Shown: in pieces, positions 1-61,040 of the stretch
How positions within the stretch are numbered: position 1 is the stretch's first letter
Layout of the letters: every line of letters starts with the position of its first letter
Assembly (NCBI RefSeq): GCF_001412085.1
Contig: NZ_LKEV01000002.1
Span: forward strand, 1 to 64,000
Reading direction: 5' to 3'
Source of the DNA: Corynebacterium lowii
GTDB lineage: Bacteria; Actinomycetota; Actinomycetes; Mycobacteriales; Mycobacteriaceae
DNA length: 64,000 bases
Program-made: the position numbers and the translations under genes
The notes under the pieces: model-generated
What the model saw: the letters and a program-made list of their open reading frames with translations, nothing else
The model's database searches: none
What the model was told of the DNA's origin: nothing

Positions 1-160
1 AAATAATCACCAGAGGGATGACCCCAATGGGAATTAAGTGTCCCATTACATAATTTTCCTCATGCCACCCAATGATAATCGCATAGATAGGAAGAACAAA
101 AAGAACAAGGAACATAAAAACTCTATACGCAGAATAGAAGATCCTCAATATTATATTCAT
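1..160 (-). CDS. Hypothetical membrane protein, N-terminal part, runs off the left edge
   Basis: Reading the minus strand from an ATG at 160 gives about 53 uninterrupted codons that reach the window edge without a stop. The protein begins MNIILRIFYSAYRVF and holds one strongly hydrophobic helix (residues about 14-30), a short polar stretch (GWHEENYVMGH), then a second hydrophobic segment (LIPIGVIPLVII). An in-frame GTG at 169 is an alternative start. The pattern of the second segment resembles the intact membrane protein at 1063-1812 (its LLGLMPVGFSIILV), so I infer a third member of the same tandem family. No function can be assigned. Confidence is limited by the short visible part and by the AT-rich composition. 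Confidence 0.5.
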   Translation of the reverse strand, partial: MNIILRIFYSAYRVFMFLVLFVLPIYAIIIGWHEENYVMGHLIPIGVIPLVII

Positions 161-283
161 ACCATTCACCCAAATCCCGCCAGAACCATTCCTACCCACT
201 ATCCCTTCTTGCAACTACAAAATATCACACTAAAGATCGGTAAATATAAAACAAATCAATCGACACTACCCCCTACATTCAAG

Positions 284-307
284 CATTGCAAAGAACTATT
301 TGCAATG
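284..307. repeat. Perfect 9-bp inverted repeat between two membrane-protein genes
   Basis: CATTGCAAA (284-292) and TTTGCAATG (299-307) form perfect arms around a 6-bp spacer. It lies about 125 bp upstream of the minus-strand gene starting at 160 and downstream of the broken copy ending at 406. No T-run follows on either strand, so an operator or attenuator is more likely than an intrinsic terminator. The rest of 161-405 is AT-rich and shows no convincing gene. Confidence 0.45.
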
Positions 308-405
308 TATCGTACACCTGATATGTTACTTCTCAAGAGGGCCTTAACTTGATCCAGGTCAGCGCTACCCAAAAAGCAGAGTTCATGTAAATATCCCCAC
401 TTTTT

Positions 406-1005
406 CTATAGAAATTTACTTCTAGACAACATTCTCCCCTCCTCTATATTCCACTCTCCCTTAATAAGAAAACCGGGTACTGTAGTGCGACTTTCATCAT
501 AAATAGTCTCCATGATCTCTGGCACTATAGAAAACTTTTTTCGAAGATCAACGATAATACAGTTATTCCATATATACACACGGCCAGCACATCGATCAGG
601 ACATAAGATGGCAACCTTAATAAATAAACAAGATCAGACTACCAGCTGAGCCTATTAAGGCCCTACTTCCACCACCAGGAAAACCGAATCCGAATAAAAT
701 TGCTAATCCAGACACGAACGATAGAAAAGTGAGAATAATTCCAATACGCACTTGATAAGTCCTGACTGTAAAAACATCATCAGGGATAACCCTTGCTATC
801 AATCCACCAAACCTCCTATTCCAGTAAAGAGCAAGAATCATATAGAACCCCAGTATGCACATTAGGAAAAAACTAGTAGACATAGTAAATATATACCACT
901 CTCCGTTTGCATAGGAGTAGATCATCGTATAGAGAACCAAGCCAGAGAAGCTACAAACAGCAAAATCTAACCAGGTAAAACTTTAATTATTATCCTTTTC
1001 AACAT
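406..1005 (-). pseudogene. Broken membrane-protein gene, paralog of the intact gene at 1063-1812
   Basis: The open part (617-940) encodes about 107 residues with at least three membrane helices and ends at a TAA at 617. One base further along, another frame continues without interruption to a stop at 406. It ends in a segment containing GEWNIEEGRM that matches GEWNIEKVDF near the C-terminus of the neighbour. The middle also aligns by eye: ARVIPDDVFTVRTYQVR here against NGRIIDFKPGERFEAKSYF there. Upstream, an ATG at 1005 opens a short reading (MLKRIIIKVLP) that would need a further shift to join the body. I read this as one gene of about 200 codons broken by one or two frameshifts. Function unknown. 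Confidence 0.5.
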
Positions 1006-1062
1006 TATATCTTTCTAGACTGTTGAACGATTTTAGTCATGCCAAACACGGAATAGACATTG

Positions 1063-1812
1063 TCAGTTCCTACCTTTCTCATCCAACAAGCTACTGTTCT
1101 CTAAAATCTTAATAATCTCTTTCCGGCCAACAGTTCCATAAATTGCCGGATCAATATTTATATAAGTTTGCTTACGGGAAAAGCTACGCGAACCCTGGAA
1201 ATCAACCTTCTCAATATTCCATTCTCCGCGAACGGTAATGTACCGGATAAAAATAGATCGACGCCGCTCGGTAAACGTAGCAGTTCCCGGAATTAAACTA
1301 CTCCTGCCCCTGCCCGTTGCCTGCAAGAAATTCTTTTCAATGACAATGCCAGTGACGCCAAGATTACCGCCCCAGAGAAGCAACCAGGTAATACAAGCAA
1401 GAAAAATACAGTCCATAATAGAATACCAGACGAGCCCACCAATCTCATCTTCGATAAATAATCCATACAATGTCGAAATATCACTTAGCACTAAAAGATA
1501 CAACGCGGCAACAAAATACCGCACGAAATAGCTTTTTGCCTCGAATCTCTCTCCAGGTTTAAAATCAATAATCCGTCCATTAATCCATCCCAATACTCTA
1601 GGAAAAGCTAATGAGGCTAAGGATACTAGAATAATAGAAAACCCCACAGGCATCAACCCTAAGAGGTAAATAGGGTCATCAAGTATAGCGCTGGCATATA
1701 TAACGGCAGCCGTAATGGCAATGCATAATAGTATTATCACAACATAATCAATAACAACATCTTTGCTATTATTTTTACGATACGCAGCCACAGGCTCACT
1801 CCAAAGGATCAT
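1063..1812 (-). CDS. Hypothetical multi-pass membrane protein with C-terminal soluble domain
   Basis: 249 residues from an ATG at 1812. About six hydrophobic segments fill residues 20-165: two helices near 22-42 and 48-70, a pair around 100-120, and a pair around 130-165. A charged, beta-rich tail of about 80 residues follows (GVTGIVIEKNF, RSIFIRYITVRGEWNIE), the layout of a membrane anchor with a PH-like cytoplasmic domain. That fold is a guess. Base composition is clearly more AT-rich than the rest of the window. It is the only apparently complete member of the tandem family at 1-1812. I do not recognise the family and assign no function. Confidence 0.65.
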   Translation of the reverse strand: MILWSEPVAAYRKNNSKDVVIDYVVIILLCIAITAAVIYASAILDDPIYLLGLMPVGFSIILVSLASLAFPRVLGWINGRIIDFKPGERFEAKSYFVRYFVAALYLLVLSDISTLYGLFIEDEIGGLVWYSIMDCIFLACITWLLLWGGNLGVTGIVIEKNFLQATGRGRSSLIPGTATFTERRRSIFIRYITVRGEWNIEKVDFQGSRSFSRKQTYINIDPAIYGTVGRKEIIKILENSSLLDEKGRN

Positions 1813-1943: not shown

Positions 1944-1979
1944 AAAAGAGGCAGCGCCCACCCCAGGCGCTGCCTTTTC
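1944..1979. terminator. Bidirectional terminator beyond hisS
   Basis: GGCAGCGCC (1950-1958) and GGCGCTGCC (1966-1974) form a 9-bp GC-rich stem with a 7-nt loop. An A-run lies on the left and a T-run on the right, so it can work on both strands. It serves hisS, which stops at 2006 on the minus strand, and marks the boundary with the AT-rich segment. Confidence 0.8.
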
Positions 1980-2005: not shown

Positions 2006-3277
2006 TTACTTCTCCCCCGTCACCTCCGCCACCACGGCGTCGAGAGCCACCTCACGCTGGCTATGCTCGGCAAGGTTCTTCACCGCCACGGTTCCGGCCT
2101 CTAATTCCTGGTCACCCAGTACCAAAGCAATGCGCGCACCGGCGCGGTCGGCCCCCTTCATCGCGCCTTTGAGTCCGCGGTCCCCATAGGCCATATCGGC
2201 GGGCACCCCGGCGGCGCGCAGGTCGTTGATGAGCCGCGCCATCACGCGCTTGGCCTCACCTCCCAGGGCCACGCCATACACCTCCACGCGCGGTGCACTC
2301 AGGTCGATGCCCTCGGCTTCCAAGGCCAGCACGGTGCGGTCCACGCCCAAACCGTAGCCGATGCCGGAGAGGTCTTGGCCGCCGAGCTGGGCCAGGAGGC
2401 CGTCGTAACGCCCTCCGCCGCCGATGCCGGATTGCGCGCCGAGGCCGTCGTGCACGAACTCAAAGCAGGTCTTGGTGTAGTAGTCCAGGCCGCGCACCAG
2501 GCGCGGGTTTATCTGGTACTGCACGCCCATGTCGTCGAGCAGCCCGGTCACGGTCTCAAAGTGCTCGCGGCTCTCGGCGGAAAGGTGGTCGAGCATCAGC
2601 GGGGCCTCGGCTACCATCTCGCGCACCTCGGGGCGCTTGTCGTCGAGCACGCGCAGGGGGTTGATCTCCGCGCGGCGGCGGGTTTCCTCGTCGAGAGGCA
2701 GGTTGAAGAGGAAGTTTTGCAGCTTCTCGCGGTATTGCGGGCGACAGGTGCTATCGCCCAGGCTGGTCAATTCCAGGCGGAAGCCGCTGAGCCCCAGGGC
2801 GCGGTAGCTGCGATCGGCTAGGGCGATCACCTCGGCGTCGAGGTCCGGGTCATCCACGCCGATGGCCTCCACGCCCACCTGCTGCAATTGGCGGTAGCGC
2901 CCGGCTTGGGGGCGCTCGTAGCGGAAGAAAGGACCGGAGTAGTAGAGCTTGGCCGGCAGTTGTCCGCGATCAAGGTGGTGTTCGATCACCGCGCGCATCA
3001 CGCCCGCGGTGCCCTCGGGGCGCAGGCTTACCGAGCGGCCACCGCGATCCTCAAAGGTGTACATCTCTTTGGTCACCACGTCGGTGGATTCGCCTACACC
3101 ACGGGCAAAAAGTTCCGTCTCCTCAAAGACGGGCAGTTCAATGTGCTCAAAGCCGGCGTTGCGGGCCTGCTGTACAAAGGTATCGCGCACCCGCACGAAT
3201 CCCGCCGAGGCCGGGGGCACATAATCGGGAACTCCCTTGGGCGCTTTATGGGCCTGATACTTCTTCTTTTCGCTCAC
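2006..3277 (-). CDS. hisS: Histidine--tRNA ligase
   Basis: Class II aminoacyl-tRNA synthetase that charges tRNA-His. The 423-residue protein shows motif 2 as [14 protein letters not shown], the HisRS-specific [11 protein letters not shown] and the glycine-rich [11 protein letters not shown] of the catalytic fold, followed by the anticodon-binding C-terminal domain (from about residue 330). I chose the GTG at 3277 ([19 protein letters not shown]), because residues upstream in the longer reading are compositionally biased and belong to the end of the preceding gene. It starts 10 bp after the stop of the metallo-hydrolase gene (3288), so the two are probably cotranscribed. The same gene pair adjoins rel and ppi in other mycolata. 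Confidence 0.96.
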
Positions 3278-3287
3278 CCCCCATACT

Positions 3288-3911
3288 TTAGCCTCCGGCC
3301 GCGCGCAGAAAGGGGTTGGTGGCCTTCTCCTGTTCCACGGTGGTTTCCGGGCCGTGCCCCGGCAGCACCCGCAGCCCTGCATCCAGGCTCGCCACTGGCC
3401 CGCGCAGCGTGGCCAGCATCGCCTCGGGGTCGGAGCCGGGCAGGTCGGTGCGCCCTATTCCGCCGCGAAAGAGCACGTCACCGCTCCAACACACCTCCTG
3501 GCCCACCAGCAGCACGCTGCCGGGCGAATGCCCCGGTGCAGGCAGCACTCGGTAATCCTCTCCGGCAATGCGCACCTTATCTTCTAGCTTTTCGACGTCC
3601 CGTGCGCGCACCATCGACGGGACGTCGAAAAGCTCCCGCAGCAGCGGCCCGCCGTCGAGCATGTGTTCATCGGCGGGGTGGATATGCACCGGCACGCCGA
3701 AGTCTCGCGAGAGTTCCCCGGCGTCGCGGATGTGGTCGATGTGGCCGTGGGTGAGCACGATGGAACTCACCGTGAGCCCTGCCTTTTCTATCTCTTGGCG
3801 CACCAGCGGCGCGGCTCCCATGCCGGGGTCGATGATGGTGGCCTCGGTGGTGCCCAAGGCCACATAGCAGTTTGTGCCCAGCGGGCCGCAGGTGAGCGTG
3901 AGGATCTTCAT
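3288..3911 (-). CDS. MBL-fold metallo-hydrolase, glyoxalase II-like
   Basis: 207 residues of the metallo-beta-lactamase fold. The metal-binding signature THGHIDH lies at about 55-61, further ligands are in APGHSPGSV (about 125) and CWSGDVLF (about 139), and the C-terminal LPGHGPETT supplies the last histidine. The size and the motif [11 protein letters not shown] are those of the small hydroxyacylglutathione-hydrolase-like group. Mycolata use mycothiol instead of glutathione, so the physiological thioester is unknown. The gene sits between hisS and the divergent cyclophilin, as in related genomes. The biochemical class is confident, the substrate is not. Confidence 0.85.
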
Positions 3912-7158: not shown

Positions 7159-7701
7159 CTAGGGATGGACAACAACGAGGGGGCTTGTACCCAGCTTCTC
7201 CCGGCCGCCGAGGCCGGGCACCTCTAATACCACGGCGTGCCCGACGACCTCGGCACCCGAGCGACGCAGGAGGGAACCCGCCGCCACGAGGGTGCCTCCG
7301 GTGGCCAGGACGTCGTCGATAAGCACGATCTTGCGCCCGGCAAGGTCCATTCCCTCGGCGGGAATCTCCAGGCAAGCCGTGCCGTATTCCAAGGAATACT
7401 CCTCGCGGATCACTGGAGGGGGCAGCTTTCCTTTCTTTCGGATCGCCACCACGCCCAGGCCCAGCTCATAGGCCACGGCCGAGCCCAGCAGAAAGCCACG
7501 CGCGTCCAGGCCTCCGATGAGTTCCGCGCCGCAATCTCGGGCAGCCTGGGCCAGGGCCTTGATGATCTCCCTAAACGCCTCCGCATCGGCCAACGCCGGG
7601 GTGAGGTCTTGGAAGATCACTCCGAGCTCGGGAAAATCCTTGACGTAGCGGATGGTGCGCTCTAGCGCCGCCGTGGCCTGCGGAAATTGCGTTGTTCCCA
7701 C
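7159..7701 (-). CDS. apt: Adenine phosphoribosyltransferase
   Basis: Purine salvage enzyme that makes AMP from adenine and PRPP. The 180 residues contain the PRPP-binding signature [12 protein letters not shown] (about 125-136), the flexible-loop region REEYSLEYG and the conserved [10 protein letters not shown]. The start is a GTG, 6 bp after the stop of the upstream lipoprotein gene, so this is the middle of a lipoprotein-apt-rel operon. The order is conserved in mycolata and links nucleotide salvage with (p)ppGpp metabolism. Confidence 0.95.
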
Positions 7702-7707
7702 CGTGTT

Positions 7708-9306
7708 TTATTCCTCGTTTATCTGCCAGCGATCCAGGTTCCAGCCAATGCCGGTGAGTCCTGTGTACACGTTCACATTATCCACCGCGGGATCGACCGC
7801 AAAAGTGCGGGGCTGCGCCGCCAGCGGAATGGCCGGAATCTCCTCCCACAATTGCCGCTCCGCATTGCGCAGGGCCGGTATTTCCGTGTTTTCCAATTCC
7901 ATTTCCCCGTACTCCGCCACCGGGTCCACGGCGCGTAGCACCGCATCCATCTTCTCCGTTCCCGGTGCCGCCGTGCCCACCAAGGAATCCATGTCTCCGC
8001 CCTCGGCGGAAACGTCCACCACCGTGATTCCTGCGGGCTCGCAGGATCGTCGAATGGCCTCCACCATGTCCGCCTTGCGCTGATCCGGCCCCATGTATCC
8101 GATGCGCACCGTGCTACCGCGCAAAGCCTCCGCGATAGTCACGTCCACGCCCAGGTGGGGATCGGCAATATCGGCCAACTGATTGCGCAGCGGGTCGGTG
8201 GCTCCCACCATGTACGTGGCCGTGGGAGGAACCTCCACCCCGCTGGCCGCAGAAGAAGCCTGCGCCACGGCAGCCTGGTCCACGCAGGCCGCAAATTGCC
8301 CGCGTGCCTCCTGGGAAGCAAAAACCCCATCATCACCCAGCGCCAGCGTATCCGTGAGCGCCCCCGGCTGGGAATACACGTCGTAGGGGTGATTCTGCTC
8401 CTGCTCCTCCACCCACTGCTTATTGCCATTGCTCACATCCGCTACCCGAATGTGTGCGCTCTCGTTGATCTTCTGGGCGTCGGCAGTGCTCGGCCACACC
8501 GTGAGATGTTCAATGCCCGCGGCATCGCCGTAATAGGACTCGTTGCGCGCCAGCACCACCTCGCCCTGCTCGCCCACCTTCTCGATGCGGTACGGGCCCG
8601 CCGATACCTGAAGCTCGGAATCAAAGGAATCCAGGTTATAGCCCTCGTGCCATACCCGCGCCAGGTCTACCAGGGCCGGGCGATCGTTATTCACCAGGGC
8701 ATTGGTGAGCTGCTGCTGAGACATGCCCGCCTTGCGCGCGATGGAGTGAGCGGGCAGCACCTCGCCGGGGCCAAAGAGATTGCGCCAGCGCCCACCCATA
8801 TTCTTCTCAAAGACCACCGTGAAGGTCTTAGCCCCTGGGGTACATTCCAGGTTTTGCACCTGCTTCATCAACGGAAGGTGCGAGCCAAAGAGCCCGGACA
8901 TCTGCCCGGCCTTGTAGGTGAGCAGAAAGTCCGTGCAGGTAATTTCCACGCCATCAGAGAACTTCGCCTCCTCAGAAATCGTGTACACCACCTGGCGATT
9001 CTCCCCCGGAAGCACCTGGGCGGTGGCCAGATCCGTATTCGGGATCATCTGCCCCGCGGGTCCCGGCGTGTACACCCCCGGATAGACCCTGCCCGATAGC
9101 ACCTGGGCGTTCGTTGAGGCCCCCAGGGTGCTGCCCGCATTCGAGGTGGCCAGCGGGGAGGAGACCAAATACGCCGGATAATCCGTGGTAGCGGCCTGCG
9201 GGGCGGCATCCTGAGTCTCCGCGCCGCAGGCAGCGATCGTCCAGGTCATCATCGCCGCCGCGATACCACCTAGTATCTGAGTCGCCGCTCGCTTGGATGT
9301 ACGCAT
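7708..9306 (-). CDS. ABC-transporter substrate-binding lipoprotein (DciAE-like)
   Basis: 532 residues of the family 5 solute-binding type (peptide and nickel binders). The N-terminus is a lipoprotein signal: basic MRTSKRAA, a hydrophobic stretch and the lipobox IAACG, with the lipidated cysteine at about residue 27. Typical family features include a conserved region around VYTISEEAKFSDG and the C-terminal lobe ending in the LWEEIPAIPLAA region. No permease or ATPase genes are next to it. The gene lies between secF and apt, the usual place of this lipoprotein in mycolata (often called dciAE), where it is an orphan binding protein. The ligand is unknown. Confidence 0.82.
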   Translation of the reverse strand: MRTSKRAATQILGGIAAAMMTWTIAACGAETQDAAPQAATTDYPAYLVSSPLATSNAGSTLGASTNAQVLSGRVYPGVYTPGPAGQMIPNTDLATAQVLPGENRQVVYTISEEAKFSDGVEITCTDFLLTYKAGQMSGLFGSHLPLMKQVQNLECTPGAKTFTVVFEKNMGGRWRNLFGPGEVLPAHSIARKAGMSQQQLTNALVNNDRPALVDLARVWHEGYNLDSFDSELQVSAGPYRIEKVGEQGEVVLARNESYYGDAAGIEHLTVWPSTADAQKINESAHIRVADVSNGNKQWVEEQEQNHPYDVYSQPGALTDTLALGDDGVFASQEARGQFAACVDQAAVAQASSAASGVEVPPTATYMVGATDPLRNQLADIADPHLGVDVTIAEALRGSTVRIGYMGPDQRKADMVEAIRRSCEPAGITVVDVSAEGGDMDSLVGTAAPGTEKMDAVLRAVDPVAEYGEMELENTEIPALRNAERQLWEEIPAIPLAAQPRTFAVDPAVDNVNVYTGLTGIGWNLDRWQINEE

Positions 9307-9409
9307 CTCTCCGTCCTCCGCTTCCTCCGACGATCTTTTTCTTGACTCCCCGCGCGCTTTCCCAGCCCTAACCCTGCGCTACAGGGCGGAGCTCATCGCC
9401 GGACAGGAT

Positions 9410-9440
9410 GCGCCGGCCGCTCAGAGAAAGCGACCGGCGC
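9410..9440 (-). terminator. Hairpin downstream of secF
   Basis: GCGCCGGCCGCT (9410-9421) and AGCGACCGGCGC (9429-9440) pair over 12 bp with one mismatch around a 7-nt loop. It lies 50 bp past the secF stop, in the 184-bp gap before the dciAE-like gene, and probably separates the two transcription units. There is no strong T-run, so efficiency is uncertain. Confidence 0.6.
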
Positions 9441-9490
9441 GGTAATCATCTCAAGGGGAGATTATAGTAGGGCCCCTCCGCAAAACAGAG

Positions 9491-10684
9491 TTAGACCTGC
9501 GGGCGCCAGGTTACTCCCCCGCTATCCCCTTCACCGGAGGGATTCGGGGAGCGCACCGTGCGGGTACCGTGTTCCTCGCGCTGATCGCTTTCCGACGCCC
9601 CTGCGACCCCCGACGCCCCCGCAGCAGAAGCGGCCGAAGCACCCGGAACCCCGGCCTTGCCAGCCCGGTAGGCCGCCACCTCCTCGTTATGGCGGCGCAC
9701 CTCCTTGGTGCGGTTAGCGATACTCACCAGGATCGGGGTGGCCAGGAAAATCGAGGAGAATACGCCCTCGATCACGCCGATGAGCTGAATAAGCGCAAGA
9801 TCCTTCAGATCACCCACGCCCAGCATGCCCACGGCCACCACCAGGAGGGCCACGATGGGCAGGGCGGAGATCACGGAGGTGGAGATGGAACGCATCACCG
9901 TCTGGTTCACCGCTGCGTTGGCGGCCTCACCATAGGTTTGGGTGCGCGATCCCATGATTCCGGCGGTATTCTCCCGCACCTTATCGAACACAATCACCGT
10001 GTCATAGATGGAGAAGGAAAGCACGGTGAGCAAACCGATGATCGCAGCCGGGGAAACCTCAAATCCAAAGAGCGCGTAGATTCCGGCGATCACCACGGCG
10101 TCGATCAGCAGGGCGATCATGGCCGCCGCAGCCATCTCTCGCTTAAGCCGCACGGCGATATAGAAGAAGGCCAGCACCAGGAATACGATCATGGACATCA
10201 CCATGCGCTTGGTGATGGTAGAACCCCAGGATTCCGAGACGGTGGAATCCCCCACCGCATCCGGGGTGGCCTTACCGGCGGCGTCCTTGGGCTGGTAGGC
10301 CTCAAAGAGAGCCATGCGGGCCTGCTGAATCTGGTCCTCGCTCAGACGCTCGGAGTTGATCTCTAGCGTGGCGGTCGAACCGGAACCCACCACCTGCGTG
10401 AGCTCCGGGGTTACTCCCGTGGATTCTTCAAAGGTCTGCGCCACCTCCTCAGAGTTGAGTTCCGCTGCGGGCATGCTCATCTTGGTGCCGCCCTCGAAGT
10501 CAATGCTCATGTCGAAGCCGCGCACGCCCACCGCCGCGATGCTCAGCACCACCAGGGCGGCCGTAATCCAGTACCACAGGCGGGAACGACTGATGAAGTC
10601 AATGCCGCCCTCGCCGGTGTAGAGGCGATCAAAAAAGTTCATCTTGGGGCTCGTAGCTTGGTTGGCAGTCTCAGTGGTGCTCAT
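9491..10684 (-). CDS. secF: Protein translocase subunit SecF
   Basis: Membrane subunit that, with SecD and YajC, uses the proton-motive force to help Sec export. The 397-residue protein has a first membrane helix at about 38-58, the periplasmic SecF domain with the signature IDFEGGTKM, and five further helices in the second half (from about residue 160). A hydrophilic C-terminal extension of about 70 residues, rich in Ala, Gly and Ser, is variable among actinobacteria. The start overlaps the secD stop as ATGA, showing translational coupling. Confidence 0.96.
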   Translation of the reverse strand: MSTTETANQATSPKMNFFDRLYTGEGGIDFISRSRLWYWITAALVVLSIAAVGVRGFDMSIDFEGGTKMSMPAAELNSEEVAQTFEESTGVTPELTQVVGSGSTATLEINSERLSEDQIQQARMALFEAYQPKDAAGKATPDAVGDSTVSESWGSTITKRMVMSMIVFLVLAFFYIAVRLKREMAAAAMIALLIDAVVIAGIYALFGFEVSPAAIIGLLTVLSFSIYDTVIVFDKVRENTAGIMGSRTQTYGEAANAAVNQTVMRSISTSVISALPIVALLVVAVGMLGVGDLKDLALIQLIGVIEGVFSSIFLATPILVSIANRTKEVRRHNEEVAAYRAGKAGVPGASAASAAGASGVAGASESDQREEHGTRTVRSPNPSGEGDSGGVTWRPQV

Positions 10685-12489
10685 CGTTTCTCCTCCTCAG
10701 AAACCGCCGAGGCAGCAGCGCGACGCCCCTGCGCCAGGGCAAAAACCTTGCCCATGCCGTTAACGGCGGGCTTGGACCAGAACGGCTTGCGGGCGGCTAG
10801 TTGCATCAGCGGGGCGGTGATAAGGAAGGTCACCACCAGGTCGAACACCGTGGTCATACCCAGAGTAAAGGCAAAGCCCTTGACCTCGCCCACGGCGAGG
10901 AAGTAAATAACCACCGAGCCGATGAGCGTGACCATGTTACCGGTAATCACCGTGCGCTTAGCGCGGTCCCAGCCGCGGTGCGTGGCCGAACGGAAGGTAT
11001 GCCCCTCACGCACCTCATCCTTAATCCTCTCGTAGATCACCACGAAGGAGTCCGCCGTGGCACCCAGGCCGATAATGAGGCCCGCGATGCCGGAGAGGTC
11101 CAGGGAGTAATCCACCCAGCGACCCAGCAGCACCAGGGAACCGTACACGATGATGCCCGAGCACAGAAGGGTGAACAGGGAAATGAGGCCGTACAGGCGG
11201 TAATACGCGAACACGAAGATCACGATGGCCGCCATGCCCACCGCACCCGCGATGAGGCCGGCCTTGAGGGAGGCCTCACCCAGGGAGGCCGGAATCGTCT
11301 CCGTGGTGCCGCCCGATTCGCCGTTTTCTCCGGCGAAGGAGAGCGGCAGGGCGCCGTAGCGCAGGTTATTGGCCAGCGTCTGGGCCTCTTCCTGGGTGAA
11401 GTTACCCGTGATGGAGGTGGCGCTGCCCACGGGGGTGGCTTCCTGGATATTCGGTGCGGAGATCACCTGGGAATCCAGGGTAATAGCCACTTGTTGTCCC
11501 GTGTACTGATCCGTGAGCTTGGCCCAGGTTTCCGAGCCACCGCCGGTGGCAAAGGCAAAGCTGATCTGCATTTGCCCCTGTTGGGAGTCATAGCCACCAA
11601 AGATTTGCTTGCTCGTATCAATCTGCGCACCGGAAAGGCGCGTGCCGTCCTCGCCCGCCTGGCCTTCGAGCACCGGGGCGGGATCGAGCAGCATCACGCC
11701 ATTGGCTCCGGGCACGCCGGTTTGCATGCTGGGATCGCAGGTCACCAGGGGCTTAGCGGGGTCATCGGTGCCCTGAAGAGGGTCGATGGAACCATCGCAG
11801 GTGAGCAGGGTGCTGGCGGCCAATTGCGCCGTGGGGTCCTCAGACTGACGATCGGAGCGCAGCACCTCCGTGAGTTCCTGGCGGCGCTCGGTGGCCTCGA
11901 TGGAGTTCTCGGGCTCCGGCAGCGCCGTGGCCGTGATCTCCGGGGCCGTCAGCTTCTCCTGTCCCTCGCCCACGGTGGTGTTGATATTCTCCACCATCGT
12001 CTCTATCGCGGAGGTGGCATCTTCCTTGCTGATAACGCCATACTCCACCCAGCGGTTAGCCATCTCCCCCACGGTCTTGGGGTAGGACGCAAGATCGGGG
12101 GCGCCTCCCTGTGCCACGGGGCGGAAGAGCAGCTTGGAGGTCTGCCCCAGGGCGCGCGCCTGGGCGGTGTCCTCTCCGGGCACGGTGATAACCAGGGTGT
12201 TGCCGTCGGTGATAACGGAGGCACCGCTCACGCCCATGCCGTTCACGCGGTTTTCCATGATCGTGCGAGCCTGCGCCAATTGCTCCTGCGTGGGGTCATC
12301 GCCCTGGGGCACCAGGGTCACCCGAGTACCACCCTGCAAATCAATCCCCAGCTTGGGAGTGGCGTGGCGATCACCGCTAAAGAAGATCAAGGCGTACACG
12401 ATCATCACGAGGAGGAGGAATCCCCCCATCGCTTTCTGCGGCCACGTGCGGCTCGCCTTTTTTGAAGCCCGTGCTCTGGGTGCTGACAC
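10681..12489 (-). CDS. secD: Protein translocase subunit SecD
   Basis: 602-residue partner of SecF. After one N-terminal helix (about 22-40) comes the signature LGIDLQGGTRVTL, then a large periplasmic domain with a head region extended by about 100 residues (TGVPGANGVMLLDPAPVL), as in other actinobacteria. The five-helix C-terminal block follows, with the conserved GLGATADSFVVIYERIKDE. It lies 80 bp downstream of yajC and is coupled to secF by a 4-bp overlap. The order ruvCAB-yajC-secD-secF is conserved. Confidence 0.96.
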   Translation of the reverse strand: MSAPRARASKKASRTWPQKAMGGFLLLVMIVYALIFFSGDRHATPKLGIDLQGGTRVTLVPQGDDPTQEQLAQARTIMENRVNGMGVSGASVITDGNTLVITVPGEDTAQARALGQTSKLLFRPVAQGGAPDLASYPKTVGEMANRWVEYGVISKEDATSAIETMVENINTTVGEGQEKLTAPEITATALPEPENSIEATERRQELTEVLRSDRQSEDPTAQLAASTLLTCDGSIDPLQGTDDPAKPLVTCDPSMQTGVPGANGVMLLDPAPVLEGQAGEDGTRLSGAQIDTSKQIFGGYDSQQGQMQISFAFATGGGSETWAKLTDQYTGQQVAITLDSQVISAPNIQEATPVGSATSITGNFTQEEAQTLANNLRYGALPLSFAGENGESGGTTETIPASLGEASLKAGLIAGAVGMAAIVIFVFAYYRLYGLISLFTLLCSGIIVYGSLVLLGRWVDYSLDLSGIAGLIIGLGATADSFVVIYERIKDEVREGHTFRSATHRGWDRAKRTVITGNMVTLIGSVVIYFLAVGEVKGFAFTLGMTTVFDLVVTFLITAPLMQLAARKPFWSKPAVNGMGKVFALAQGRRAAASAVSEEEKR

Positions 12490-58267: not shown

Positions 58268-59236
58268 ATGGTAATGAGCATGCACAATAAGGAGTATCGG
58301 CCGACTCTTGCCCAGTTGCGGACCTTTGTGACCATCGCGGAGAACAAACACTTTGGTACCGCAGCGGCAAAGCTTAATATCTCGCAGCCCTCGCTCTCCC
58401 AGGCCCTATCCGCGCTAGAAAACGGCATCGGCATGCAGCTCATTGAGCGCTCCACTCGCAAGGTCATCGTTACCCCCGTGGGTGAACGACTCCTGCCCTA
58501 CGCCAAGGCCGCCCTCGATGCCACCGATATTTTCGTGGCCCACTCCCGCGGCTCCTATGGCCAACTCATCGGCCCTCTTTCCCTCGGCGTGATCCCCACC
58601 ATCGCCCCCTATTTGCTGCCCACCCTGCTCCCCCGCTTGCAGCAAGAATATCCCGAATTAGAACCCCGCATCGTAGAAGATCGCACCACTAATCTGCTGC
58701 ACATGCTGCGCGAGGGGCGTATCGACGCCGCCCTGCTCGCCCTGCCCACCGAGGCCCCCGGGGTGGTGGATATTCCGCTCTACCAGGAGGAGTTCGTGGT
58801 CGTCGTGCCGGACTCGCACCCGCTGGCCGGGCGCGATGATCTTAGCCTCCAAGCCCTCGATGATCTACAACTTCTGTTGCTCAACGACGGCCACTGCCTC
58901 CACGACCAGATCGTTGATCTTTGCCGCAAGGCCGATCTCAACCCCAGCCAGGCGGCGGGTTCCATTACCCGCGCCTCCTCGCTGACCACCATCGTGCAAC
59001 TCGTGGCCGGTGGTTTGGGCAGCACCCTCATTCCCATCAGCGCCGTAGAAGCGGAATGCCAGCGCCCCGGTCTGAGCACCGCCTCCTTCGCCCCCGGAGT
59101 AAGCGCGGAGAGGCACGTGGGGCTGGCATACCGAGCCTCCAGCTCCCGGAGCGCGGAGTTTACCAAGCTCGGGAGCACCATCACCCGCGCCTACCGCGCG
59201 GCCGTGCCCCTGCGCCAGGAATCTGCGGTGTACTAA
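58268..59236 (+). CDS. oxyR: Hydrogen-peroxide-responsive LysR regulator OxyR
   Basis: 322 residues. N-terminal winged helix-turn-helix (RTFVTIAENKHFGTAAAKLN then ISQPSLSQALSALENGIGM), then the periplasmic-binding-like sensor domain. The two cysteines expected of OxyR are present: LLLLNDGHCLHDQIVDLCRK (about 203-222). OxyR in corynebacteria represses catalase and other peroxide genes until oxidised. The start is uncertain: ATGs at 58268, 58274 and 58280 are all possible, and MHNKEYRPTL from 58280 resembles the N-terminus of the C. glutamicum protein. Stop to stop it abuts the convergent membrane-protein gene. Confidence 0.93.
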   Translation: MVMSMHNKEYRPTLAQLRTFVTIAENKHFGTAAAKLNISQPSLSQALSALENGIGMQLIERSTRKVIVTPVGERLLPYAKAALDATDIFVAHSRGSYGQLIGPLSLGVIPTIAPYLLPTLLPRLQQEYPELEPRIVEDRTTNLLHMLREGRIDAALLALPTEAPGVVDIPLYQEEFVVVVPDSHPLAGRDDLSLQALDDLQLLLLNDGHCLHDQIVDLCRKADLNPSQAAGSITRASSLTTIVQLVAGGLGSTLIPISAVEAECQRPGLSTASFAPGVSAERHVGLAYRASSSRSAEFTKLGSTITRAYRAAVPLRQESAVY

Positions 59237-60070
59237 TTACGAGGCGGCGGGGAGTTCTCCACCGCTGGCCTGGCGGTATATATGCGCCATGCTCAGGTAC
59301 ATAGCGGGAGCCAGAATCAAAGCGCCCAGGCCGAGAGTGATGAAAGCGCCGATAGCCACCACCAGGCCTCCCAGCGTGGCGAACAGCAGAACCTGAAGAT
59401 AATTGCGCTTTCCGGCTTTAAAGCCCTGGGAAATAGATTCGCCTATCCCATTGCCGTCTGCGGCGTACCAAGACCAAAAGCTAAAGAAGGGATTTATGAG
59501 CATCACGGCCAAAAAGAGCAATACCGCCACACTGATAATCACCGCCATAGGCGGGTTTGTAGCTATGAAGATTGTGGCCGCAAGGAGTGCGACAACCACA
59601 GCGATAACCAAGTACACAAGCCCCTGAATGATAGAGACCGCCAGCACCTTCAAATAGGCAACATCGCGGAAGAAGTCACCCAGCGATACTCGATCTTTGC
59701 TCACCTGTACAAGCGCACCCGTGAGAAGGAAAGGCGTAATGAGGAGCTGTATGAGACCGAGAACCCAATCCGTCCACGAGGTCTCCATCGTGGACGGAGC
59801 GGAGGGATCAGAAAAATCCATGGCGGCAAACACACCGGCTACGGAAAAACCGATCGTCAGTAGCCCCAGCACCAGGGTTCCAATGATCCAGATGGGCCAA
59901 TTGCGGAATACCGCCTTAAACGCCCAGCCGATAGCCAGGGGTACATCAGCCTTGCCCGTGCCTCGCGTGGTCACGCTTTCTTGCGCCCAGTCCGGGGTGC
60001 CCTGCGGATACTGAGGGTAGCCCTCAAACCCTGAAGAGTCCTCCGGGTGCGGCGTGGAAGGATAAGTCAT
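59237..60070 (-). CDS. Hypothetical multi-pass membrane protein
   Basis: 277 residues. A proline-, serine- and tyrosine-rich cytoplasmic start (SGFEGYPQYPQGTPDW) is followed by KADVPLAIGWAFKAVFRNW and about six membrane helices. In the C-terminal half, WSWYAADGNGIGESISQGFK and AGKRNYLQVLLFATLGG resemble the membrane domain of glycerophosphodiesterase/DUF975-like proteins. A degenerate copy lies directly upstream (60151-60947). Function unknown; convergent and adjacent to oxyR. Confidence 0.75.
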   Translation of the reverse strand: MTYPSTPHPEDSSGFEGYPQYPQGTPDWAQESVTTRGTGKADVPLAIGWAFKAVFRNWPIWIIGTLVLGLLTIGFSVAGVFAAMDFSDPSAPSTMETSWTDWVLGLIQLLITPFLLTGALVQVSKDRVSLGDFFRDVAYLKVLAVSIIQGLVYLVIAVVVALLAATIFIATNPPMAVIISVAVLLFLAVMLINPFFSFWSWYAADGNGIGESISQGFKAGKRNYLQVLLFATLGGLVVAIGAFITLGLGALILAPAMYLSMAHIYRQASGGELPAAS

Positions 60071-60150
60071 GGATCTCCCTTTCTGCCTTCATCGCGTATT
60101 GAGTCACAGGCCATGCTACCTATATATCCTCAGCCGTGTATTTCCCCCAC

Positions 60151-60947
60151 CTAAGCAGCAGGCAGCGGGCCACCATAAGCCTGGCGAGAAATATGGGCAT
60201 TAGCCAGCAAAAATACAGCGGGGAAAACCAAGAATCCCAGACCCAAAGTGAAGATGCACAGCAGCCCCACCGCTATCGGAGCCAGCAAGCCGTATAGTAA
60301 GAGCGCCCAGTAATTTCGCTTGCCGGCCTCATATCCTTTGCGCACAGCAGATCGAAAAGTCTCCCCCTCCGCAGCGAACCACGCCCAAAGATAAACCAAG
60401 GGGGTAACAAAAATGGTCGCAATACCACCCACGAACAAGGTCACAAAGCCCATCATTGTCAGTATCACCTGAGCGTCACCACCGGCGACATTTCCCAAAA
60501 GTTCCAGCGGCTGCACCACAATAAGATACAAGGAAAGCGCAAGATTCACTGCCAGTGCAGCAAAAAACACATTGCCATAGTTGAGGTTAATGAAAAAGTA
60601 TTTCCATTTCCCTCTTTGATGATCTACTTACCCAAGGGCACCCGCATAAACGAAGGGAGTGAGCAAAATGATAACCAGGACACCAACAGCGTTACTCAGA
60701 ATATCAAGAGCTCCTCTGGGAGATCGTAGTAATTACCCGGCCCCATCACCGCCATAATCACTGCCGCCGCAAAGATTCCCACGACGAAAAATCCCAGCAG
60801 CGAACCCAAAATCCATACGCGCTTATTCCGAAAGACTGTTTTAAAAGCCCAGCCCAAGGCCTCAATCACATCCACTTTCCCAGGAACTCTGATCTGCTCC
60901 TGCCCATAACTGGGGTAGTCCGGATACGCTCCAGTGGAATAATCCAT
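60151..60947 (-). pseudogene. Degenerate tandem copy of the membrane-protein gene at 59237-60070
   Basis: From the ATG at 60947 the first frame gives YPSYGQEQIRVPGKVDV and EALGWAFKTVFRNKRVW, matching the intact neighbour, and stops at 60696. Another frame then continues (DILSNAVGVLVIILLTPFVY) but meets a TAA at 60628-60630, at a position where the neighbour has glutamine (GALVQVSKDR against GALG-stop-VDHQR). After it the same frame runs on through EGETFRSAVRKGYEAGKRNY to 60151. The copy thus carries at least one frameshift (near 60698-60712) and one nonsense codon. It is a clear decayed paralog, not one sequencing error. Confidence 0.85.
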
Positions 60948-61040
60948 AACGTTTCCTCCCTACAACAGGTGATACAATCCGCAGCCCATACTACCCAGCA
61001 TTGGCCCACCAGCCCGGATACCCTAAAATCGGCTCCTAGC

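What the first reader, a model, noticed from the sequence alone, without database searches (positions are those of the whole stretch)
1..1812. AT-rich tandem array of paralogous membrane proteins of unknown function at the hisS border
Three consecutive minus-strand genes (1-160 partial, 406-1005 broken, 1063-1812 intact) share membrane segments and, in the last two, a C-terminal segment with GEWNIE. The base composition is visibly more AT-rich than the rest of the window, and the block starts exactly beyond the hisS terminator. Tandem, decaying copies of a small membrane protein with a soluble tail suggest an acquired, fast-evolving locus. Immunity to a secreted toxin or bacteriocin is one hypothesis, not shown by the sequence.
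Basis: partly seen in the sequence, partly recalled or inferred. Interest (0 to 1): 0.6.

Follow-up and report, generated by a model that had tools for sequence, protein, structure and literature searches.

The report
Orphan toxin-immunity genes beside hisS
Next to hisS this bacterium keeps a short row of small membrane-protein genes that in its relatives sit directly behind a secreted, probably membrane-damaging antibacterial toxin, so they most likely protect the cell from such toxins although no toxin gene is found beside them here.

Summary
The block is real: GC 39.1% against 62.2% for the rest of the window, with an intact 249-codon gene and a broken relative of it. The partial third gene is not shown to be related by sequence. 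Window base 1 is a contig end.

In three relatives (G063, G064, G219) the same hisS-sdaA interval holds an MspA-like porin gene, a large protein with a signal-peptide-like start and a hydrophobic C-terminus, then relatives of the window genes. G105 has six in a row behind a toxin remnant. Other proteins of the same large family end in TNT, WHH-nuclease or Tox-REase-5 domains: polymorphic toxins. Here porin and toxin are absent at hisS; a copy of both, the toxin frame broken, lies on another contig at a site empty in G063 and G064, followed by a gene start 98% identical to window 1-152.

Best reading: an orphan immunity array that works like staphylococcal TsaI against TspA, of an unnamed family (no match for the 249-aa protein in Pfam, NCBIfam, PADLOC, PHROGs). 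Immunity is inferred from gene order, not tested.

The parts
1063..1812 (-). immA: intact immunity-like gene, 249 codons, four predicted membrane segments and a soluble C-terminal part; a GTG at residue 8 with GGAG seven bases before it may be the true start (read by eye)
   Evidence: ORF; hydropathy segments starting at residues 20, 48, 102, 127; profile 94.0 bits against at most 10.5 in 1000 shuffles; best relative G063 copy 3, 31% over 180 residues, E 1.9e-24
406..982 (-). immB: broken immunity-like gene, N-half about 620-982 and C-half about 406-633 in different frames
   Evidence: translations; C-half 21.0 bits and N-half 10.8 against best shuffles of 7.0 and 10.1; C-half 41% identical to a G064 copy, E 3.9e-14
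1..160 (-). gene X: 5' end of a gene cut by the contig end, with a membrane segment; membership by position only
   Evidence: window 152-1 matches C4 (L031) 11067-11218, just behind the toxin, at 98.0%, the outermost 127 bases identical; profile score not above shuffles
1949..1975 (-). terminator-like hairpin between hisS and the array
   Evidence: consensus scan; a pattern match, not proof
2006..3277 (-). hisS, conserved left border of the cassette in relatives (start placed by comparison with relatives' hisS)
   Evidence: ORF 2006-3382; 82-83% nucleotide identity to G063 and G064 from window 2016-2020 onward, and no match left of it

Best explanation
Window 1-1812 is part of an orphan immunity array (a homogeneous polyimmunity locus) of a polymorphic toxin system made of an MspA-like porin, a secreted toxin and tandem immunity genes. 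In relatives the hisS-sdaA interval holds the whole cassette. Here porin and toxin are absent next to hisS, while an intact immunity gene, a broken one and a third, partly seen gene remain; a copy of porin and toxin (toxin frame broken) sits at another site. Proposed mechanism, inferred: the toxin leaves by the Sec pathway, the linked porin helps it across the outer membrane, and its hydrophobic glycine-rich C-terminus inserts into and depolarises the target's cytoplasmic membrane; the four-helix immunity protein sits in that membrane and blocks insertion or assembly of the matching toxin type; keeping diverged copies without the toxin protects against toxin variants of neighbours. Shown: family relationship, gene order, no toxin between hisS and the array, the copy elsewhere. 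Inferred: immunity, membrane target, role of the porin, benefit of keeping the array.
For: Gene order toxin then family members in 4 of 4 other genomes with the family, with six members in a row in G105. The toxin family is polymorphic: same module with TNT (4e-18 and 1.3e-11), WHH nuclease (8.5e-9) followed by an SMI1/SUKH gene (2.4e-8), or Tox-REase-5 (6.6e-10) tails. Hydrophobic tails go with membrane proteins behind them: 14 of 15 loci against 1 of 7. An MspA-like gene lies upstream in 18 of 24 toxin loci fetched. hisS is followed directly by the array here, without nucleotide remnant of porin or toxin. Precedent: TsaI arrays and orphan ExiCD genes against membrane-depolarising toxins (passages).
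Against: No protection or toxicity was tested by anyone for this family. immA is only 20-30% identical to its relatives, so which toxin it would match is unknown. Gene X is not shown to belong. One of the two assessable genes is broken, so the array may be a relic. The repeat left of window base 1 is not in the assembly, so a toxin gene hidden there is not excluded. The tail/membrane association used cut-offs chosen after seeing the data and related loci. Structure prediction failed (pLDDT 50.8 and 36.4).
Confidence: 0.75

Rival explanations
1. Relic: after toxin and porin left the hisS site the immunity genes are useless leftovers being lost; immA is intact only because too little time has passed.
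For: immB is broken; the G064 array is broken and fragmentary too; the toxin copy elsewhere has a broken frame.
Against: immA keeps 249 open codons at 39% GC and the family's invariant residues; orphan immunity genes are kept for protection in staphylococci (passages).
Confidence: 0.15
2. Not immunity but a partner of the toxin: the membrane proteins help to export or fold it.
For: Tight linkage behind the toxin gene; small membrane proteins can be secretion partners.
Against: Partners are expected in one conserved copy; here there are two to six diverged copies, the kind of downstream protein changes with the toxin tail, and the array stands without toxin at hisS.
Confidence: 0.07
3. Unrelated AT-rich hydrophobic frames (for example phage or chance ORFs) that only look like paralogues.
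For: Low GC; little direct similarity between the window copies; no family match for immA.
Against: Profile score of 94.0 bits for immA against at most 10.5 in shuffles; same kind of gene at the same place in relatives; no PHROG match for immA.
Confidence: 0.03

Closest known systems
TspA / TsaI (DUF443) of Staphylococcus aureus (PMC7456083, PMC9484751; passages read)
   Same: Polymorphic membrane-depolarising toxin; strings of non-identical polytopic membrane immunity genes directly downstream, 11 in strain RN6390; pseudogenes and toxin fragments at the locus.
   Different: TspA uses a type VII system and TsaI is DUF443 with five predicted membrane segments; immA has four and no DUF443 match; here an MspA-like porin gene stands upstream and the hisS array has no toxin.
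EsxX / ExiCD of S. aureus ST398 (PMC12744356; abstract and passages read)
   Same: Glycine-zipper membrane toxin; polytopic membrane immunity proteins also found as orphans in strains without the toxin.
   Different: ExiC and ExiD work as a pair and a soluble pair ExiAB guards the cytoplasm; no sequence relation was tested.
Homogeneous polyimmunity loci (Zhang et al. 2012, PMC3482391; passages read)
   Same: Tandem, same-strand, diverged paralogous immunity genes without a toxin between them.
   Different: The described examples are soluble families such as SUKH or Imm11; this is a membrane family without a model in the libraries searched; only two to three genes are visible here.
CpnT / TNT of Mycobacterium tuberculosis (listing only; otherwise recalled)
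   Same: Toxin passage across a mycolic-acid outer membrane; TNT tails occur in the same toxin family.
   Different: CpnT carries channel and toxin in one polypeptide exported by type VII systems; here porin and toxin are separate genes and the toxin has a Sec-like start.

Membership tests
Homogeneous polyimmunity locus | tandem paralogous genes of one immunity family, same strand, short gaps, no toxin gene between them | tested here: met
   immA and immB same strand, about 80 bases apart, related; gene X uncertain; gap immB to X about 245 bases
Homogeneous polyimmunity locus | members neutralise toxins | not testable with these tools
   only gene order behind toxin genes in 4 of 4 other genomes with the family
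Homogeneous polyimmunity locus, extended form (four or more genes) | at least four tandem immunity genes | tested here: inconclusive
   at most three are visible before the contig end; G105 has six
DUF443 / TsaI (PF04276) | match to the DUF443 model | tested here: not met
   no match at E up to 1 in the own genome (none of the 14 control genomes passed the cut-off either, so the call has no positive control) and not among the families matched by 10 members
DUF443 / TsaI | polytopic membrane protein with five predicted segments | tested here: not met
   four segments in immA by hydropathy; a crude method
STM3941 family (NF041635) | score over the curated cut-off of 40 bits | tested here: not met
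   25 bits for one G105 member, no match for immA
Polymorphic toxin family (the linked toxin, not in the window) | conserved N-terminal part with exchangeable C-terminal toxin domains and matching downstream genes | tested here: met
   TNT, WHH, Tox-REase-5 and hydrophobic tails on one module
MspA-like porin (the linked gene, not in the window) | match to PF09203 over its cut-off | tested here: met
   153.1 bits, cut-off 22.9, for the G063 gene; only 31.2 of 280 bits for the strict NCBIfam MspA model; other loci tested by BLASTP to the G063 protein

The most novel reading that the evidence does not exclude
Corynebacterium and kin use an undescribed class of antibacterial weapon: a Sec-exported polymorphic toxin paired with its own MspA-like outer-membrane porin; this species has copied the weapon to a second site and kept the old site as a toxin-free library of four-helix membrane antidotes against rivals' variants.
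Probability: 0.35. Interest if true: 0.75.

Novelty: new variant of a known kind. Interest (0 to 1): 0.5.

Why it matters
If true, a simple three-part cassette (porin, toxin, membrane antidotes) would make it testable how bacteria with a mycolic-acid outer membrane send protein toxins across it, and the diverged antidotes would show which part of a membrane immunity protein sets its specificity. It would also give a function to a family that has no model in Pfam, NCBIfam, PHROGs or PADLOC.

Tried and rejected
Led nowhere: Pfam, NCBIfam, PADLOC and PHROGs for immA (no family; single relatives gave weak hits below cut-off, e.g. STM3941 at 25 bits and phrog_23063 at E 0.0021); PDB by profile (two designed membrane proteins, E 0.14 and 0.16, judged chance); AlphaFold of immA and of its last 100 residues from one sequence each, too poor, so no fold search was run; Rfam on 1-2300 at gathering thresholds (nothing); plasmids with immA (none) and with the G063 toxin (12 records, mostly the conserved middle module); genome contigs with immA (one 23-residue match in Epilithonimonas, judged chance). 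Contig C11 (3212 bases) was tested as the missing repeat and rejected.

Considered and rejected: DUF443 membership; a PH-like C-terminal domain (my guess from the sequence; the models could not test it); recent arrival of the whole locus by transfer, because relatives keep the cassette at the same place. The words signal peptide, kdp, transposase and Sec are my reading of the sequences; no call tested them.

Full report
What is there. The window starts at base 1 of contig C2 of an 11-contig, 2.35-Mb genome, so nothing can be read to its left. Bases 1-1812 have 39.1% GC against 62.2% for the rest; the lowest of 604 other windows of that length is 53.4%. The block lies behind a terminator-like hairpin of hisS at 1949-1975. 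On the minus strand it holds immA (1063-1812, intact), immB (about 406-982, broken, halves in two frames) and the first 53 or so codons of gene X (1-160). immA has four hydrophobic segments followed by a soluble C-terminal part.

Relatedness. A profile of 11 relatives from G063, G105 and G219 (no window sequence) gives immA 94.0 bits, the C-half of immB 21.0 and its N-half 10.8; the best of 1000 shuffles of each is 10.5, 7.0 and 10.1, so the N-half is marginal. Gene X gets 1.1 bits, reached by 567 of 1000 shuffles. Two of the three genes are thus shown to be paralogues. Direct BLASTP between window copies is weak or empty.

Relatives. With the single protein 3 of 201 genus genomes match, the own one included; with a 10-member profile 5 of 242: G000, G063, G064, G105, G219. 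Residues L173, P175, G196 and W198 (immA numbering) are invariant in 12 members. G063 has hisS, an MspA-like porin (PF09203, 9.7e-45), an 884-aa protein with a signal-peptide-like start, three family members, a 190-aa protein, sdaA. G219 has hisS, porin, toxin (73% identical to that of G063), a member, a 175-aa protein, a member, sdaA. G064 has the same frame, with the porin in two frames, a broken member, fragments and a transposase-like ORF. G105 has a 305-aa toxin remnant and six members in a row; whether hisS or sdaA flank it was not checked. The AT-rich dip is shared: GC about 0.38-0.43 over the members in G063 and 0.45-0.47 in three 1-kb bins of G219.

The toxin family. The 884-aa protein matches 28 of 201 genus genomes at E up to 0.001, some only by a short stretch, and 36 of 201 genomes drawn from the family (own genus included) at 1e-5, in 12 of 31 genera, outside the genus mostly by a module at residues 335-450. 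That module also occurs in 12 plasmid records, whose matching genes are named hypothetical protein, GH-E family nuclease, TNT domain-containing protein, DUF4258 or DNRLRE protein. I fetched 24 toxin loci from 16 genomes, mainly the strongest matches, not all of the 28. An MspA-like gene lies upstream in 18 of 24; of the other six, four are cut by contig ends (L051, L053, L054, L063) and two are remnants (L047, L062). Tails are TNT (L044, L058), WHH nuclease with an SMI1/SUKH gene next (L050), Tox-REase-5 (L057), or hydrophobic. Of 23 loci tested, 16 have a hydrophobic tail; one of these (L031, this genome) ends with the contig. In 14 of the other 15 one of the next two genes has at least two predicted membrane segments (L053 does not), against 1 of 7 remaining loci (L061, whose frame is broken) (Fisher p 0.0006; for the first gene alone 12 of 15 against 1 of 7, p 0.007). 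Cut-offs were chosen after seeing the data, the loci are related, and in L044, L045 and L046 the tested tail is not the TNT part, which lies in the next frame; the p-values are descriptive. G197 (L048) has a full toxin followed by further tail pieces alternating with membrane-protein genes, as polymorphic toxin loci often do.

What happened at hisS here. Between hisS and immA no porin or toxin is found, and BLASTN shows no remnant. Porin and toxin sit at the end of contig C4 (L031:7090-8034 and 8302-11057; the toxin in two overlapping frames); intact copies exist in G063, G064 and G219. About ten bases behind it starts a 152-base match (98.0%) to window 152-1, its outermost 127 bases identical. 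Contigs C6 and C8 likewise end in a shared 181-base piece of sdaA (98.9%, outermost 127 bases identical). Identical 127-base ends suggest one longer repeat, from the 3' end of sdaA to gene X, present twice and dropped by the assembler; this is inference. The flanks on C8 and C4 are neighbours in G063 and G064 without a toxin between them: similarity stops at L088:6607 and resumes at 7165, in L089 at 6426 and 6603. So a cassette with a hitch-hiking sdaA fragment entered that site in this lineage. The fragment is closer to the resident sdaA (98.9%) than to that of G063 (89.0%), which points to a copy from the hisS-sdaA locus. That C2 joins C6 at the old site is taken from the relatives' order; the crosswise joining (C2 with C8, C4 with C6) is not excluded, nor is a toxin gene inside the missing repeat.

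Mechanism. Shown: relationship, gene order, no toxin between hisS and the array, a copy elsewhere. Inferred: family members are antidotes to the toxin type they follow; the toxin tail acts in the target membrane; the porin helps export; the toxin-free array guards against others' variants. TsaI arrays behind TspA and orphan ExiCD genes are precedents (passages of PMC7456083, PMC9484751, PMC12744356), and homogeneous polyimmunity loci are described by Zhang et al. (passages of PMC3482391). 'Works like TsaI' is my claim; 'is a DUF443 protein' was tested and not met, with the caveat that one search has no positive control over the cut-off.

Novelty. Searches of the held papers for Corynebacterium + polymorphic toxin + immunity (25 papers), MspA + polymorphic toxin (6), Corynebacterium + MspA + toxin + immunity protein (0), Corynebacterium + TNT domain (1) and, with three of four terms, Corynebacterium / contact-dependent / toxin-immunity / interbacterial (118, 15 listed) showed no title or abstract start that describes this system. 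I saw listings only, apart from passages of PMC3482391 and PMC8092301; most subscription journals are not held. I rate it a new variant of a known kind: known logic (toxin and orphan antidotes), an unnamed membrane antidote family and a porin partner.

Noticed in passing
L044:7062-11563 (G063), L045:6034-11034 (G064), L046 (G128): A second MspA-toxin locus whose toxin tail is a TNT domain (Pfam tested for L044 only, 4e-18), followed by tandem soluble 237-254-aa genes; the tail lies in a different frame from the rest.
   Followed up: partly
L048:5697-14701 (G197): A full toxin gene followed by further C-terminal pieces alternating with membrane-protein genes.
   Followed up: partly
L006:7777-8349 (G063), L082:11335-11862 (G219), L007:10795-11337 (G064): A 175-190-aa protein with a membrane segment occurs between the immunity genes and sdaA in three relatives; no Pfam or NCBIfam match for the G063 copy.
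   Followed up: partly
L031:8302-11057 (G000 contig C4): The toxin gene of this genome lies in two overlapping frames; broken gene or sequencing error cannot be told apart.
   Followed up: no
L036 (G000 contig C11, 3212 bases): A small separate contig with broken frames, one reading like an ATP-binding domain by eye; no nucleotide match to the loci compared.
   Followed up: no
window about 59212-61024: Lowest GC of the rest of the window (53.4% in an 1812-base window); content not examined.
   Followed up: no
L007:9432-10037 (G064): A transposase-like ORF (by eye) inside the decayed immunity array.
   Followed up: no
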